A model generated the notes under the pieces. It did not search any database and was not told the origin of the DNA. It was given only the letters and a program-made list of their open reading frames with translations. Source: Fictibacillus marinisediminis (GTDB lineage: Bacteria; Bacillota; Bacilli; Bacillales; Fictibacillaceae). Taken from it: a stretch of DNA of 64,000 nucleotides. Shown here one piece after another: positions 43,891 through 48,162 of the stretch. The DNA lies in the NCBI RefSeq assembly GCF_023149135.1, contig NZ_JAIWJX010000002.1, positions 496,001 through 560,000 on the forward strand. Reading direction: 5' to 3'. Within the stretch, counting starts at the first letter, position 1. The number at the start of each line of letters is the position of its first letter. The position numbers and the translations under genes are program-made.

Positions 43891-43918
43891 AACCTCTCGT
43901 TGTGGAGAGGTTTTTTAT
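43891..43918 (+). terminator. Terminator of the VCBS-like gene
   Basis: AACCTCTC / GAGAGGTT stem, 6-nt loop, followed by TTTT. Confidence 0.82.
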
Positions 43919-43994
43919 ATGATAAAAAAACCATTGACTTTCTCCCTTTTGCAGATTAAAGTAATAACTATATTTTCTAAAAATTAAATATTCA

Positions 43995-44110
43995 TTCTCT
44001 TATCAAGAGTGGCAGAGGGACTGGCCCTATGACGCCCAGCAACCGTTCCGTAATGGAATTGGTGCTAATTCCAGCAAAACAGCATGTCTGTTTTGAGAGA
44101 TAAGAGAGGA
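43995..44110 (+). promoter_or_regulatory. SAM-I (S-box) riboswitch
   Basis: The S-box core is well preserved: CTTATCAAGAGTGGCAGAGG, GACTGGCCC-TATGA-CGCCC, AGCAACC, GGTGCTAATTCCAGCAAAA, and GAGAGATAAGAG closing helix P1 with TCTCTTATC near 43996. Binding of S-adenosylmethionine stabilises P1 and lets the downstream terminator form, switching transcription off when SAM is plentiful. It stands in front of the ribose-type ABC importer genes. A TTGACT -35-like box is at 43934, but no clearly spaced -10 was found. Confidence 0.93.
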
Positions 44111-44134
44111 CGAATCCGTTATACATATGCGATG

Positions 44135-44166
44135 AAACCTCTCTTTTTCCAGAGAGGTTTTTTTAC
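44135..44166 (+). terminator. Riboswitch-controlled terminator
   Basis: AAACCTCTCT / AGAGAGGTTT stem followed by seven Ts, 25 nt after P1 of the S-box. GAGAG(A)/GAGGA sequences in the 3' strand of P1 can pair with CCTCTC to form the antiterminator when SAM is absent. Confidence 0.85.
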
Positions 44167-44237
44167 GTGGTGGGGCTTATTTCGCTGGTCCCGTGCCCCC
44201 TTGAGAAGAGAGATATACAAAAAAGGGAGTTGGGGAA

Positions 44238-45353
44238 ATGAAACGATTCATCAATTGCGCGGCAATCTCCGCGGTCGCTTTATCACTTTTATTAACAGGC
44301 TGTTCATCCGGAAGCAATACCGCTTCATCAGCTGGCAAACATGAAAAGGTCTCGTTCGATAACGTGCCAAAGCGGTTTGCCAAAGGGCAGGGAGCCCGAA
44401 TCAAGGTTATCCGTAAAATCGGCGGTGATGATCATACAGCTCAATTTTTAGCAGGTGCTAAAGCGGAAGGGGAGGCACTTGGTTTTACCGTTGATACCTA
44501 CACAGCAAACGGTGATACCGCCAAGTTCCATGATGCGATTGCCCAGGCGGCTGATGAGAATTACGACGGTTTTATCATCTCTCACGGTGATGATGCGGCT
44601 ACCATAAACGATATTAAGAAACTGCGGGAAAAAGGAAAGAACGTGGTGACGTTTGATTCCAATCCGGACCTCGCGAAAGTAGGCGGTGTCACACTTACGT
44701 CTCAGGACGATGAAGCCCTTGCCAAGCTGGCTCTCGATCAGCTCGTTAAAGAGAACAAAGGAAAAGCCAACATCGTTTATCTTTGGGTAGACGGGTTCCC
44801 GCCGATGGTGCGACGCAACGCCGTCTTTAAAGAAACATTGAAGAATAACCCGGGAATCAAGGAAGTAGAGCGCTTTGGCGTTGCTTCTGCAGATACGTCG
44901 GTCCAGACGCAAAATGCGGTGACGGCCATGCTGAACAAACATAAAAGAGGCGAGATTGATGCCATTTTTGCCACATGGGATGCCTTTGCGATCGGGGCTG
45001 CACGTGCGATTAAAGAAGCGGGACGCAATGAAATCAAAATTTACGGTATCGACGTCTCCAATGCAGACCTTCAAGAAATCCAGAAAAAGAACAGCTCTTG
45101 GAAATACACAGCAGCTGTGGATCCTAAGCTCATCGGGGCAGTGGATATGAGAATTCTTGCTAAAAAGCTTGCGGGTGAAAAAACACCTCAAAAATATGAT
45201 TTGAAAGCTTCACTTGTTTCACAAAAGGATCTGCAAAAATCAAACGAGGGTGTGAACATGGTCAACCTGTCCAAGGAAATTAAAGGCTGGGGCCAGTCTG
45301 ATGCATTTGAGGAAGATTGGATGAAGACACTTAAGGATCACTACCAAAAATAA
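44238..45353 (+). CDS. Ribose-type ABC transporter substrate-binding lipoprotein (SAM-riboswitch regulated)
   Basis: 371 aa. Lipoprotein signal with LLLTGC lipobox (Cys about 22), then a Peripla_BP_4 domain of the ribose/AI-2-binding type (about 50-340): DGFIISHGDDAAT, VVTFDSNPD and YGIDVSNADLQEI are hinge and ligand-pocket strands. It captures a ribose-like compound outside the cell. Because an S-box precedes it, the ligand probably relates to sulphur or methyl recycling, for example methylthioribose. That proposal exists in comparative S-box studies as I recall them, but here it is inference. GGGAGTTGGGG ribosome site. Followed by a highly structured 300-bp spacer before the ATPase gene. 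Confidence 0.88.
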   Translation: MKRFINCAAISAVALSLLLTGCSSGSNTASSAGKHEKVSFDNVPKRFAKGQGARIKVIRKIGGDDHTAQFLAGAKAEGEALGFTVDTYTANGDTAKFHDAIAQAADENYDGFIISHGDDAATINDIKKLREKGKNVVTFDSNPDLAKVGGVTLTSQDDEALAKLALDQLVKENKGKANIVYLWVDGFPPMVRRNAVFKETLKNNPGIKEVERFGVASADTSVQTQNAVTAMLNKHKRGEIDAIFATWDAFAIGAARAIKEAGRNEIKIYGIDVSNADLQEIQKKNSSWKYTAAVDPKLIGAVDMRILAKKLAGEKTPQKYDLKASLVSQKDLQKSNEGVNMVNLSKEIKGWGQSDAFEEDWMKTLKDHYQK

Positions 45354-45370
45354 CTGAAACTCTCAGGAAA

Positions 45371-45497
45371 AGAATGGGACTTGAATAGCCTAATAAATTG
45401 AACCGCACAAGAAAAAGCGAGCTCTTTTTCTTGAGTTCAATTTTCGGCTATTCAATTTTACAATTGCTGGCTCATACTACACCAGCAGTCCCATTTC
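45371..45497 (+). other. Long intercistronic RNA hairpin between binding-protein and ATPase genes
   Basis: Nested stems: AATGGGAC (45373-45380) with GTCCCATT (45488-45495); TTGAATAGCC (45381-45390) with GGCTATTCAA (45446-45455); AAATTGAAC (45395-45403) with GTTCAATTT (45435-45443); CAAGAAAAAG (45408-45417) with CTTTTTCTTG (45424-45433). The last three form a nearly continuous ~29-bp stem-loop. There is no T-run, so it is not an ordinary terminator. It probably stabilises or processes the upstream mRNA, or is an independent structured element. Confidence 0.7.
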
Positions 45498-45602
45498 ATA
45501 AATGTAAAGTAAAAGATTTGAGGGTCTCTTGCACACATCAGTATGTGATGTATGTAAGAAAGCTAATCAAAATGAAATTTTATTTATGCAAAATGAAAAC
45601 GC

Positions 45603-45632
45603 ACACTCTCTTTTTAAAGTTAAGAGAGTGTT
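45603..45632 (+). other. Second hairpin just before the ATPase gene
   Basis: ACACTCTCTT / AAGAGAGTGT, perfect 10-bp arms with a 9-nt loop, ending about ten bases before the GGGAAGGGGAG ribosome region of the next gene. It could block ribosome access or act as a weak terminator. Confidence 0.6.
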
Positions 45633-45657
45633 TGCTTTGAGGGAAGGGGAGAAGCAG

Positions 45658-47157
45658 ATGGCTCTGTTGGAGATGAAGGATATAAGTATTGAGTTTCCGG
45701 GTGTAAAAGCGTTGAATCGTGTAAGCTTTGCCAGTGAAACCGGCCGGGTTCATGCGCTGATCGGAGCGAACGGGGCTGGGAAGTCGACCCTCATGAAGAT
45801 TCTGTCGGGAGCCTACAATCATTACACGGGCGAGATTCATTTGGACGGAAAAAAAGCGGCCATCACTTTGCCGAGAGATGCCCTGGACGAAGGAATTCAA
45901 ATCGTCCATCAAGAGGTTGACATCGCACTGATCCCGTATTTAACCGTTGGTGAAAATATTCTGCTGCATGATCTGATCAACGAGATGGGTAAAAAGCAGC
46001 TTGTAAGATGGAAACAGCTGCATAAGAAGGCATCGCAAATTTTAGAAGAGATGAACATTAACGTTTCTTCCAAAAAGCTGGTCAGTGAGCTTACTCTTGC
46101 TCAAAAGCAGATGGTTCTCATCGCCCGAGCGGTTTCAGCACAGTGCCGTTTTCTAATATTGGATGAACCGACTGCGCCGTTAAGCCACTCAGAAACTAAC
46201 GAACTGTTCCGGATTGTCAGAAACCTGAAGTCTAAAAATGTAGGCATCATATTCATTTCTCACCGGCTGCCGGAAATCTTTGAAATCTGTGATGATATTA
46301 CGGTGATGAGGAACGGTGAGTTAGTCATAAAAGAATCAATTTCGGAAACTTCAATCAACCGGGTCATCGAGCAGATGCTCGGCAAGGCGTTGGATGAGCA
46401 GTTTCCTGCCTTGAACGGAAAAGTGGGAGAAACTGTTCTTGAGGTAAAAGGACTTTCTGACGCCGAGAAGATCAAGGGTTTGAACTTAACGGTCCGTGCG
46501 GGTGAAATTATCGGAATCGCGGGACTTGTAGGAGCAGGAAAAACAGAGCTGTGCAAAACCCTGTTCGGCTGTACAAAGATTACAGCAGGAGCTGTTCTTC
46601 TCAAGGGGAAGAAACTGAAGCTGAAAAGTCCGCATCAGGCGGTAAAGCAGGGCCTGGCTCTCGTTCCGGAAGAACGGAGAAAAGAGGGGATTCTGGTCGC
46701 GGAATCGGTTGCTGCTAATCTAACAGCGGCCAATCTTGGACAGTTCACCAAGGTACTAAGTTTTCTGGATCGCCGGGCGGAAAAGCAAAAGGCTGTTGAA
46801 ATCATTCAAACCTTAGGCATTAAGACGCCATCTGAGAAAACGAAGGTTCAAAATCTGTCCGGGGGCAATCAGCAAAAGATCGCGATCGGCAAATGGCTTA
46901 TCGCAGATGCCGATGTTTATATTTTTGATGAGCCGACGAAGGGTGTAGATGTAGGTGCTAAGAAGGACATTTTTGAATTGATCTCTGCGCTGGCAAAACG
47001 GGGCAAAGCCATCCTTTATGCGTCCTCAGAGTTTACAGAGATTCTGGGTATCACGAACCGTCTTTACGTGCTGTATGACGGACGCAGTGTGAAAGAGCTC
47101 AAAACCTCAGCCGCGACGGAAGAAGAGCTATTATTCTATTCAACAGGAGGAAGGTAG
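45658..47157 (+). CDS. Ribose-type ABC importer ATP-binding protein (two ATPase domains)
   Basis: 499 aa, the RbsA/MglA tandem architecture. Domain 1: Walker A GANGAGKSTL (about 37), SELTLAQKQM in the signature position, Walker B FLILDEPTAPL, switch FISHRLPE. Domain 2: degenerate Walker A GLVGAGKTEL (about 294), LSGGNQQK signature, Walker B VYIFDEPTKGVD. Start ATG 45658 has a strong GGGAAGGGGAG site; the longer open frame runs through the hairpins and is not used. It energises uptake with the permease, whose start codon follows its stop directly. Confidence 0.9.
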   Translation: MALLEMKDISIEFPGVKALNRVSFASETGRVHALIGANGAGKSTLMKILSGAYNHYTGEIHLDGKKAAITLPRDALDEGIQIVHQEVDIALIPYLTVGENILLHDLINEMGKKQLVRWKQLHKKASQILEEMNINVSSKKLVSELTLAQKQMVLIARAVSAQCRFLILDEPTAPLSHSETNELFRIVRNLKSKNVGIIFISHRLPEIFEICDDITVMRNGELVIKESISETSINRVIEQMLGKALDEQFPALNGKVGETVLEVKGLSDAEKIKGLNLTVRAGEIIGIAGLVGAGKTELCKTLFGCTKITAGAVLLKGKKLKLKSPHQAVKQGLALVPEERRKEGILVAESVAANLTAANLGQFTKVLSFLDRRAEKQKAVEIIQTLGIKTPSEKTKVQNLSGGNQQKIAIGKWLIADADVYIFDEPTKGVDVGAKKDIFELISALAKRGKAILYASSEFTEILGITNRLYVLYDGRSVKELKTSAATEEELLFYSTGGR

Positions 47158-48162
47158 ATGGAGCTTTCAAAACCAATACCGGCCCAAGTTTCACCAAAAA
47201 AGAAATTTGAGCTGTTCGACTTTTTTTATAAATATGGAACGATCTTAACCATTATGGTCTTAATTGGTGTGTTCACTGCGGCCAATCCATCCTTTGTGCA
47301 GGGACACAATCTGATGAACATCTTACGGTCGATCTCCATCGTTACTATCATTGCGATCGGCATTACGATATCGCTGTCTGTCAACGGATTTGACCTTTCT
47401 GTCGGATCTGTGGCCTCTCTTTCGAATGCCATTGCGATCTCAATGTTTGTCTGGTTCTCCCAGAACACGGTGGTAGCGATTCTTTCCGCCCTCGCTGCCG
47501 CTCTGATTGTCGGCATCATTAACTCCGTGATGATTGTTAAAGTGAAAATACCGGATATGCTCCTGACGCTTGCCACCATGTTTATCATCCAGGGGATTGC
47601 ACTCACGTACACGAAAGGGGCGACCATATCGCAAAACATGGTCATGCCTGATGGAACGTTTGCGACGGGCAAGATCAGTGCAGCGTTCGAGAAAATAGGC
47701 CAAGTCCCTTGGATCATCGTGATCATGGCAGCGGCTGTTCTACTTGTCCATGTTCTTCTCAACTACACAAAGCATGGGAGGTACATGTATGTCATCGGCG
47801 GGAATGAAGAAGCGGCAAGACTTTCAGGCATTCCGGTAAACAAATATAAGGTAGCGGCCTATCTGCTGTCCGCTCTTTTTGCTTCGATTGGCGGTATTGT
47901 GCTGGCATCAAGAGTGATGACTGCTGAAATTAATGCAGGCACTCCGTATTTAATGGATGCTGTGGCTGCGGCTTTTATTGGTTTTTCGGTATTTGGTGCA
48001 GGCAAACCCAATGCTTTTGGAACCCTGATCGGCGCTGTATTGATCGGAATTCTGCAGAACGGCCTCGTCATGATGTCTGTTCCTTACTATTCCATGGACA
48101 TTGTTAAAGGGGCAGTCCTTGCATTTGCGCTGGCCTTAACGTATTACAAACAAAAAAAATAA
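47158..48162 (+). CDS. Ribose-type ABC importer permease
   Basis: 334 aa, RbsC-like (BPD_transp_2), about ten predicted transmembrane helices. ISLSVNGFDLSVGSVASLS (about 72-90) and the EEAARLSGIPVNKYKVAAY coupling helix (about 215-235) are family hallmarks. It forms the membrane channel for the binding protein and ATPase encoded upstream. The ATG follows the ATPase stop without a gap, and AGGAGG lies inside that gene. No terminator is evident after it. Confidence 0.9.
   Translation: MELSKPIPAQVSPKKKFELFDFFYKYGTILTIMVLIGVFTAANPSFVQGHNLMNILRSISIVTIIAIGITISLSVNGFDLSVGSVASLSNAIAISMFVWFSQNTVVAILSALAAALIVGIINSVMIVKVKIPDMLLTLATMFIIQGIALTYTKGATISQNMVMPDGTFATGKISAAFEKIGQVPWIIVIMAAAVLLVHVLLNYTKHGRYMYVIGGNEEAARLSGIPVNKYKVAAYLLSALFASIGGIVLASRVMTAEINAGTPYLMDAVAAAFIGFSVFGAGKPNAFGTLIGAVLIGILQNGLVMMSVPYYSMDIVKGAVLAFALALTYYKQKK

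What the first reader, a model, noticed from the sequence alone, without database searches (positions are those of the whole stretch)
43995..48162. SAM riboswitch controlling a complete ribose-type ABC importer
Seen: a well-conserved S-box followed by its terminator, then binding lipoprotein, dual ATPase and RbsC-type permease. Known: S-box RNAs regulate methionine/SAM genes, and RbsABC-like systems carry ribose-like compounds. Inference: the importer takes up a sulphur- or methyl-cycle ribose derivative (5-methylthioribose, methylthioadenosine or a related nucleoside) rather than ribose. No mtnK/mtnA salvage gene is in the window, so the ligand is open.
Basis: partly seen in the sequence, partly recalled or inferred. 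Interest (0 to 1): 0.8.

Follow-up and report, generated by a model that had tools for sequence, protein, structure and literature searches.

The report
SAM-switched methylthioribose importer operon
A Fictibacillus-like bacterium carries an RNA switch for S-adenosylmethionine in front of genes that very probably pull in 5-methylthioribose, a sulphur-containing sugar scrap that its own enzymes can turn back into methionine; this arrangement was predicted before in related bacteria, so it is a good but fairly ordinary example.

Summary
A full S-box (RF00162, 95.1 bits) at 43997-44106 is followed by a terminator (44134-44164) whose 5' arm can instead pair with the 3' P1 strand, then a binding lipoprotein, a dual ATPase (start 45658) and a permease. 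The likeliest ligand is 5-methylthioribose (MTR). The nearest solved chains to the binding protein are 5ULB and 4RY8; 4RY8 is titled a 5-methylthioribose transporter binding protein. The same genome has one mtnK and one mtnA over cut-off behind an S-box, mtnWXBD behind another, and a separate true RbsB. Some relatives lie in one operon with mtnKA or the whole salvage pathway. Of 150 genomes of the order, all 47 with this binding protein also have mtnK (77 of 150 have it). The system was already predicted (mtrACB; S-box in Bacillus cereus): a new member of a known kind. Two side results are fresher. In 15 of 15 Paenibacillaceae loci a conserved promoter palindrome stands where the S-box would be. 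In three genomes the importer and mtnKA-like genes adjoin a microcompartment locus with a class II aldolase, suggesting 5-deoxyribose or MTR breakdown there; the window's genome lacks that aldolase.

The parts
43891..43916 (+). terminator-like hairpin behind the upstream gene
   Evidence: pattern scan, 8-pair stem with T tail; such sites in the region: 8 against 5.1 (sd 2.5) in shuffles, so weak
43934..43962 (+). candidate promoter TTGACT-17-TAAAGT ahead of the S-box
   Evidence: 9 of 12 consensus match; promoter-like sites in the region do not exceed shuffles (4 against mean 6.4), so weak
43997..44106 (+). SAM riboswitch aptamer (S-box); P1 arms 43997-44004 and 44099-44106
   Evidence: RF00162 95.1 bits, E 1.4e-21; fourth best of 21 S-boxes in the genome
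44102..44109 (+). antiterminator strand AAGAGAGG, overlaps the 3' P1 arm, can pair with 44138-44145
   Evidence: RNAfold of the transcript truncated at 44152
44134..44164 (+). intrinsic terminator, 11-pair stem and U tract
   Evidence: -14.4 kcal/mol; forms together with P1 in the full leader
44238..45353 (+). mtrB-like: solute-binding lipoprotein (371 aa)
   Evidence: PF13407 125.6 bits; 47-48% identity to 5ULB and 31-32% to 4RY8, ranks 1 and 2 by fold
45373..45495 (+). structured insert with nested inverted repeats between mtrB and mtrA, also in L046, absent from L030 and L031; function unknown
   Evidence: repeat scan, fold -49.6 kcal/mol for 45371-45510, one genomic match at E <= 0.001, spacers compared
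45596..45638 (+). stem-loop just upstream of mtrA, kept in four other Fictibacillus loci; possible mRNA stability or dosage element
   Evidence: inverted repeat 82% complementary; hairpin folds in L030, L031, L032, L063; split by an insert in L046
45658..47157 (+). mtrA-like: fused dual ABC ATPase (499 aa)
   Evidence: two PF00005 stretches; start placed by eye
47158..48162 (+). mtrC-like: RbsC-type permease (334 aa)
   Evidence: PF02653 137.7 bits

Best explanation
This is an mtrBAC operon: an ABC importer for 5-methylthioribose (MTR) under a transcription-terminating SAM riboswitch. When SAM is plentiful, SAM holds P1 closed, the terminator forms and the operon is off. When SAM (methionine) runs low, the antiterminator forms and the importer is made. 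Extracellular MTR is captured by the lipoprotein, pumped in, phosphorylated by MtnK, isomerised by MtnA and returned to methionine by MtnWXBD and a transaminase; mtnKA and mtnWXBD stand behind S-boxes of their own in this genome. Shown by computation: aptamer, terminator/antiterminator geometry, gene families, salvage genes, partial conservation of S-box and context. Inferred: SAM response, MTR specificity, direction of transport.
For: S-box and expression platform. S-box upstream in 20 of 36 relative loci. Nearest solved chains 5ULB and 4RY8, the latter titled '5-methylthioribose transporter solute binding protein'. mtnK (533 bits, cut-off 275) and mtnA (450.6, cut-off 279) once each over cut-off, mtnN present. 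S-boxes in front of mtnKA and mtnWXBD in the same genome. Relatives: one S-box then mtnW-X-B-D-mtrB-A-C-mtnK-mtnA (L097, L098); mtnWXBD and mtrBAC-mtnKA divergent, each with an S-box (L100, L101). A more distant type of the importer (36-44% identity): of 7 such loci fetched, 5 read S-box-mtnKA-mtrBAC, one S-box-mtnWXBD-mtrBAC (L092), one S-box-mtrBAC (L093). 47 of 47 mtrB genomes have mtnK over cut-off against 77 of 150 overall. A separate RbsB scores 376.7 bits (cut-off 337); the window's protein 47.4. The genome's only class II aldolase match lies in the mtnWXBD operon.
Against: No binding or transport assay; 4RY8 is only about 32% identical. 16 of 36 relative loci lack an S-box at gathering threshold in the fetched DNA (15 Paenibacillaceae and L040), and so do 3 of the 8 first-type loci with mtnKA attached (L095, L099, L102). 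In three genomes the same importer type adjoins a class II aldolase microcompartment locus, which suits 5-deoxyribose as well. The importer is 1.07 Mb from mtnKA here. The co-occurrence test ignores kinship among genomes.
Confidence: 0.85

Rival explanations
1. The importer takes 5-deoxyribose (the scrap of radical-SAM enzymes), alone or together with MTR; the SAM switch would then tie 5-deoxypentose scavenging to SAM status.
For: In G016, G102 and G135 the same importer type sits beside mtnKA-like genes, a DrdA-like aldolase and a microcompartment locus. The mtnK/mtnA beside this importer type are only 39-44% and 54-57% identical to the window genome's, so they could be DrdK/DrdI-like paralogues. 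Published DrdK accepts 5-deoxyribose and MTR about equally (PMC6079011, passages).
Against: The window's genome has no such aldolase: one PF00596 match only, in the mtnWXBD operon, and no match to the L096 aldolase at E <= 1e-50. 4 of the 22 genomes with this importer type have that aldolase. The same importer with the same mtnKA type also occurs inside complete methionine-salvage clusters (L097, L098, L100, L101). 4RY8's title names MTR.
Confidence: 0.1
2. An ordinary ribose importer that happens to be under an S-box.
For: Family resemblance to RbsABC.
Against: Far below the curated cut-offs (RbsB 47.3 against 337, RbsA 500.8 against 745, RbsC 204.7 against 398). A separate RbsB over cut-off exists in the genome. 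Context in relatives is methionine salvage.
Confidence: 0.03
3. An importer of methylthioadenosine, S-ribosylhomocysteine, AI-2 or a nucleoside.
For: All are linked to SAM chemistry; mtnN exists in the cell to cleave nucleosides.
Against: Fold and sequence neighbours shown are sugar-type binding proteins with the MTR protein near the top. LsrA and LsrC models score 381.5 against 586 and 104.4 against 388.
Confidence: 0.02

Closest known systems
mtrACB, the probable MTR ABC transporter first noted in Bacillus cereus (S-box) and in Enterobacteria (MetJ sites), PMC3228920; also the annotation '5-methylthioribose ABC transporter' in PMC9502454
   Same: binding protein, dual ATPase, permease; S-box in a Gram-positive; presence with mtnK
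   Different: here the operon stands alone, mtrB first, far from mtnKA; the B. cereus protein itself was not compared
4RY8, Tlet_1677 of Thermotoga lettingae, 5-methylthioribose transporter binding protein
   Different: 31-32% identity; distant organism; ligand contacts could not be inspected here
MtrA (formerly YfnA), MTR influx in Bacillus subtilis (PMC5743806, passage)
   Same: same proposed substrate
   Different: that YfnA is a secondary permease unrelated to ABC importers is recalled; if so, an unrelated solution to the same task
DrdKIA 5-deoxyribose disposal / DHAP shunt (PMC6079011)
   Same: kinase and isomerase paralogous to MtnKA; sugar transporter genes in some clusters
   Different: needs an aldolase for which the window's genome gave no match

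Membership tests
SAM-I riboswitch (S-box, RF00162) | covariance-model score above gathering threshold over the full model | tested here: met
   95.1 bits against 44.4, positions 1-108 of 108
SAM-I riboswitch (S-box, RF00162) | expression platform in which P1 competes with an antiterminator | tested here: met
   alternative folds of full and truncated leader
SAM-I riboswitch (S-box, RF00162) | SAM-dependent termination | not testable with these tools
   needs in vitro transcription
mtrBAC MTR ABC importer | Peripla_BP_4 lipoprotein + dual ATPase + BPD_transp_2 permease side by side on one strand | tested here: met
mtrBAC MTR ABC importer | binding protein closer to the structure titled as MTR-binding than to ribose binders | tested here: met
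mtrBAC MTR ABC importer | co-occurrence with mtnK/mtnA in the genome | tested here: met
   both present behind an S-box, though unlinked; 47 of 47 genomes; 8 of 22 close homologues within 10 kb of mtnK
mtrBAC MTR ABC importer | binds and transports MTR | not testable with these tools
   no assay
RbsABC ribose importer | NCBIfam equivalog cut-offs for RbsB, RbsA, RbsC | tested here: not met
   47.3/337, 500.8/745, 204.7/398
DHAP shunt / 5-deoxyribose disposal | DrdA-type class II aldolase in the genome | tested here: not met
   one PF00596 match, in the mtnWXBD operon; no match to the L096 aldolase
LsrACDB (AI-2) | Lsr equivalog cut-offs | tested here: not met
   LsrA 381.5/586, LsrC 104.4/388, LsrD 103.1/500

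The most novel reading that the evidence does not exclude
The window's importer belongs to a family of 5-substituted-ribose importers with two fates. In many genomes of the order it goes with methionine salvage under SAM riboswitches. In some (G016, G102, G135; split by about 50 kb in G029; G028 has no importer match) mtnKA-like genes go with a conserved microcompartment locus (DrdA-like aldolase, aldehyde dehydrogenase, four or five BMC-domain shell proteins, PduL, EutN, a pyridine-nucleotide oxidoreductase, CoA-transferase-like genes): a metabolosome that would cleave 5-deoxyribulose or 5-methylthioribulose 1-phosphate and trap the aldehyde. In one of them (L096) the importer of that locus is itself behind a SAM riboswitch. 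The window's protein may then import both sugars.
Probability: 0.4. Interest if true: 0.6.

Novelty: new member of a known kind. Interest (0 to 1): 0.3.

Why it matters
It narrows an open ligand question with converging evidence and shows a recurring under-annotation: where sources name these proteins among the 120 hits listed, the name is a generic sugar-transport or binding-protein one. It would be a second MTR uptake route in Bacillus relatives beside the B. subtilis MtrA (YfnA). The wider family offers a natural test of how one importer is rewired between a SAM riboswitch, a promoter operator and a microcompartment locus.

Tried and rejected
Ribose, AI-2 and nucleoside readings were rejected on curated cut-offs and context. 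The idea that the operon serves a DHAP shunt in this genome was rejected because no second class II aldolase was found.

The Paenibacillaceae palindrome was tried as a CymR-type site: the one B. subtilis CymR site that I found in print (PMC11487621, passage) does not resemble it; PMC2869319 gave no site in the passages shown. In three genomes the pattern with up to 2 mismatches gave 6 matches against 8 for the reversed control; one site per genome with 0-1 mismatch, the one before mtrB. Two 2-mismatch hits precede genes that I read by eye as ROK-type regulators. The factor stays unknown. mtnK in those three genomes has neither an S-box nor the palindrome core in the fetched 4.2 kb.

The insert 45373-45495 was tried as a repeated element: one copy in the genome.

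In one search the row meant as the genome's own RbsB was another protein in L066 and was dropped; the pocket comparison rests only. The 2004 source study of the transporter is not held. Names of genes behind S-boxes other than mtnK, mtnA and the class II aldolase were read by eye, whose output was cut; mtnW, X, B, D labels in relatives rest on similarity to those.

Full report
WHAT IS THERE. At gathering threshold Rfam finds a single RNA in the 64 kb window, a SAM-I riboswitch at 43997-44106, 95.1 bits against 44.4. Folding of the complete leader gives P1 plus an 11-pair terminator at 44134-44161 with a U tract; folding of the transcript cut at 44152 gives instead AAGAGAGG (44102-44109) paired with CCTCTCTT (44138-44145), so P1 and antiterminator compete for one strand. 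In the same script, which prints only the lowest-energy hairpin before a T run, that hairpin was the terminator in 16 of 20 relative leaders and the antiterminator helix in 4 (L030, L032, L033, L036), as in the window. The three proteins are a lipoprotein of Peripla_BP_4, a double ABC_tran ATPase and a BPD_transp_2 permease; the ATPase is taken to start at 45658.

WHOSE GENOME. The binding protein is 98% identical to one in Fictibacillus sp. FJAT-27399 and 92-94% to four other Fictibacillus genomes. The genome has 21 S-boxes over the cut-off; this one ranks fourth by score.

SALVAGE GENES. mtnK (533 bits) and mtnA (450.6 bits) lie at C2:1605862-1608059 behind the S-box at 1608165-1608318; mtnW, X, B and D follow the S-box at 1610556-1610664 (W, X, B and D named by reading). 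mtnN scores 331.4 bits. The only class II aldolase match in the genome lies in that second operon, C2:1612677-1613231. A true RbsB lies elsewhere, 376.7 bits against a cut-off of 337; the window's protein scores 47.4.

RELATIVES. A scan of named genomes gave 36 loci. 20 of 36 have an S-box upstream on the same strand; the other 16 are 15 Paenibacillaceae loci and L040 (family placement of Thermobacillus recalled). 5 of 36 have mtnK, four of them also mtnA, directly behind mtrC in the fetched DNA. In 150 genomes drawn from the same order, 47 carry the binding protein at E <= 1e-60 and all 47 carry mtnK over its cut-off, against 77 of 150 overall; Fisher p 9.7e-19, uncorrected for kinship. The 48 hits fall into 22 at 61-100% identity (first type; 8 within 10 kb of mtnK, each with mtnK downstream on the same strand) and 26 at 36-44% (second type; 17 within 10 kb). 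Of ten loci that I chose from these, seven are second type: five read S-box-mtnK-mtnA-mtrB-mtrA-mtrC, one S-box-mtnWXBD-mtrBAC, one S-box-mtrBAC. Of the three first-type loci, one (L094) has an S-box and two (L085, L086) have none. Wider stretches of all eight linked first-type loci show salvage clusters behind one S-box (L097, L098), divergent S-box pairs (L100, L101), mtrBAC-mtnKA without S-box (L095), and three microcompartment contexts (L096 with S-box; L099 and L102 without): 5 of 8 with an S-box.

HOW IT WORKS. Low SAM opens the operon; the importer captures MTR and salvage returns it to methionine. E. coli, lacking the pathway, excretes MTR (PMC3228920, passage), so external MTR can exist. 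Inferred: SAM response, substrate, and that the stem-loop before mtrA may tune the ratio of binding protein to pump.

KNOWN OR NEW. PMC3228920 calls mtrACB a probable MTR transporter first identified in B. cereus, with an S-box there and met-boxes in gammaproteobacteria, not functionally characterised (passages). PMC9502454 uses the annotation '5-methylthioribose ABC transporter' for B. cereus strains (passages). B. subtilis uses MtrA, formerly YfnA (PMC5743806, passage). Searches for the phrase 'methylthioribose transporter' and for '4RY8' found 0 papers in the held library. So: a new member of a known kind that I found no functional test of.

SIDE RESULT 1, REGULATORY SWAP. In 15 of 15 Paenibacillaceae loci the region before mtrB has TTGAC, 13 bases, then TCC(T/G)ATAG(G/A)(A/T)T(T/A)(A/G)CT, a perfect or near palindrome overlapping a likely -10 region (pattern written after viewing the alignment), and no S-box in the fetched 5 kb. 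Three of these genomes were checked and have mtnK. The binding factor is unknown; in those three genomes the motif did not recur more than its reversed control.

SIDE RESULT 2, MICROCOMPARTMENT. In L096 the genes beside mtrBAC-mtnKA are, by Pfam, a class II aldolase, an aldehyde dehydrogenase, four BMC-domain proteins, PTAC (PduL), EutN_CcmL, a pyridine nucleotide-disulphide oxidoreductase and a divergent DeoR regulator (ten proteins scanned); a fifth BMC protein is 88% identical to one of these. Most of the set recurs in L099 (fetched stretch ends after PduL), L102, L104 (no DeoR seen, no importer) and L105 (four BMC proteins found; importer and mtnKA about 50 kb away in L095). CoA-transferase-like genes at the end of the locus were named by eye. 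8 of 150 genomes have the aldolase at E <= 1e-50; 5 of those 8 show the microcompartment genes in the stretches I fetched, 3 (G026, G041, G076, the last cut by a contig end) do not. No S-box was found at L099, L102, L104 or L105. Chemistry fits: DrdKIA turns 5-deoxyribose into DHAP and acetaldehyde and also acts on MTR (PMC6079011, passages); that acetaldehyde is a usual load of such compartments is recalled. The main text of the microcompartment catalogue PMC8217296 has 0 hits for the terms methylthioribose and deoxyribose, though class II aldolases are noted in its PVM, GRM5 and ACI types (passages). A search for microcompartment with methylthioribose or 5-deoxyribose listed 7 papers; only one, on Acetobacterium woodii, holds the microcompartment term, with a methylthioribose kinase gene called unrelated to it. 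This is a lead, not a demonstrated new compartment type.

Noticed in passing
L096:373-14460; L099:5310-17803; L102:1886-15089; L104:7337-16097; L105:5792-13185: Conserved microcompartment locus with a class II (DrdA-like) aldolase, beside mtnKA-like genes in L096, L099, L102 and L104 and with mtrBAC adjacent in L096, L099 and L102: a candidate 5-deoxyribose or methylthioribose metabolosome; S-box before mtrB in L096 only.
   Followed up: partly
upstream of mtrB in L047, L049-L061, L064: 15 of 15 Paenibacillaceae loci have a strongly conserved palindrome inside the mtrB promoter and no S-box; regulator unknown.
   Followed up: partly
window 45373-45495: A strongly folding, single-copy insert with nested inverted repeats between mtrB and mtrA, shared with L046 but absent in L030 and L031.
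   Followed up: partly
L046:6377-6613: A second insert of about 230 bases splits the stem-loop before mtrA, flanked by a repeated TAAAGTTA and with inverted ends: looks like a small non-autonomous transposon.
   Followed up: no
L044:4197-4498: Two S-boxes in tandem upstream of mtrB (93.2 and 95.1 bits).
   Followed up: no
G000:C2:965561-965879 and 985122-985432: Two further tandem S-box pairs in the window's genome, before genes that read by eye as homoserine dehydrogenase and a MetNIQ-type importer.
   Followed up: no
G044, G082, G112 (L092:10232-11308 for G044): The match to three second-type binding protein genes contains one stop codon; in L092 the reading frame ends a little early, so the C end may be shorter there.
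   Followed up: no
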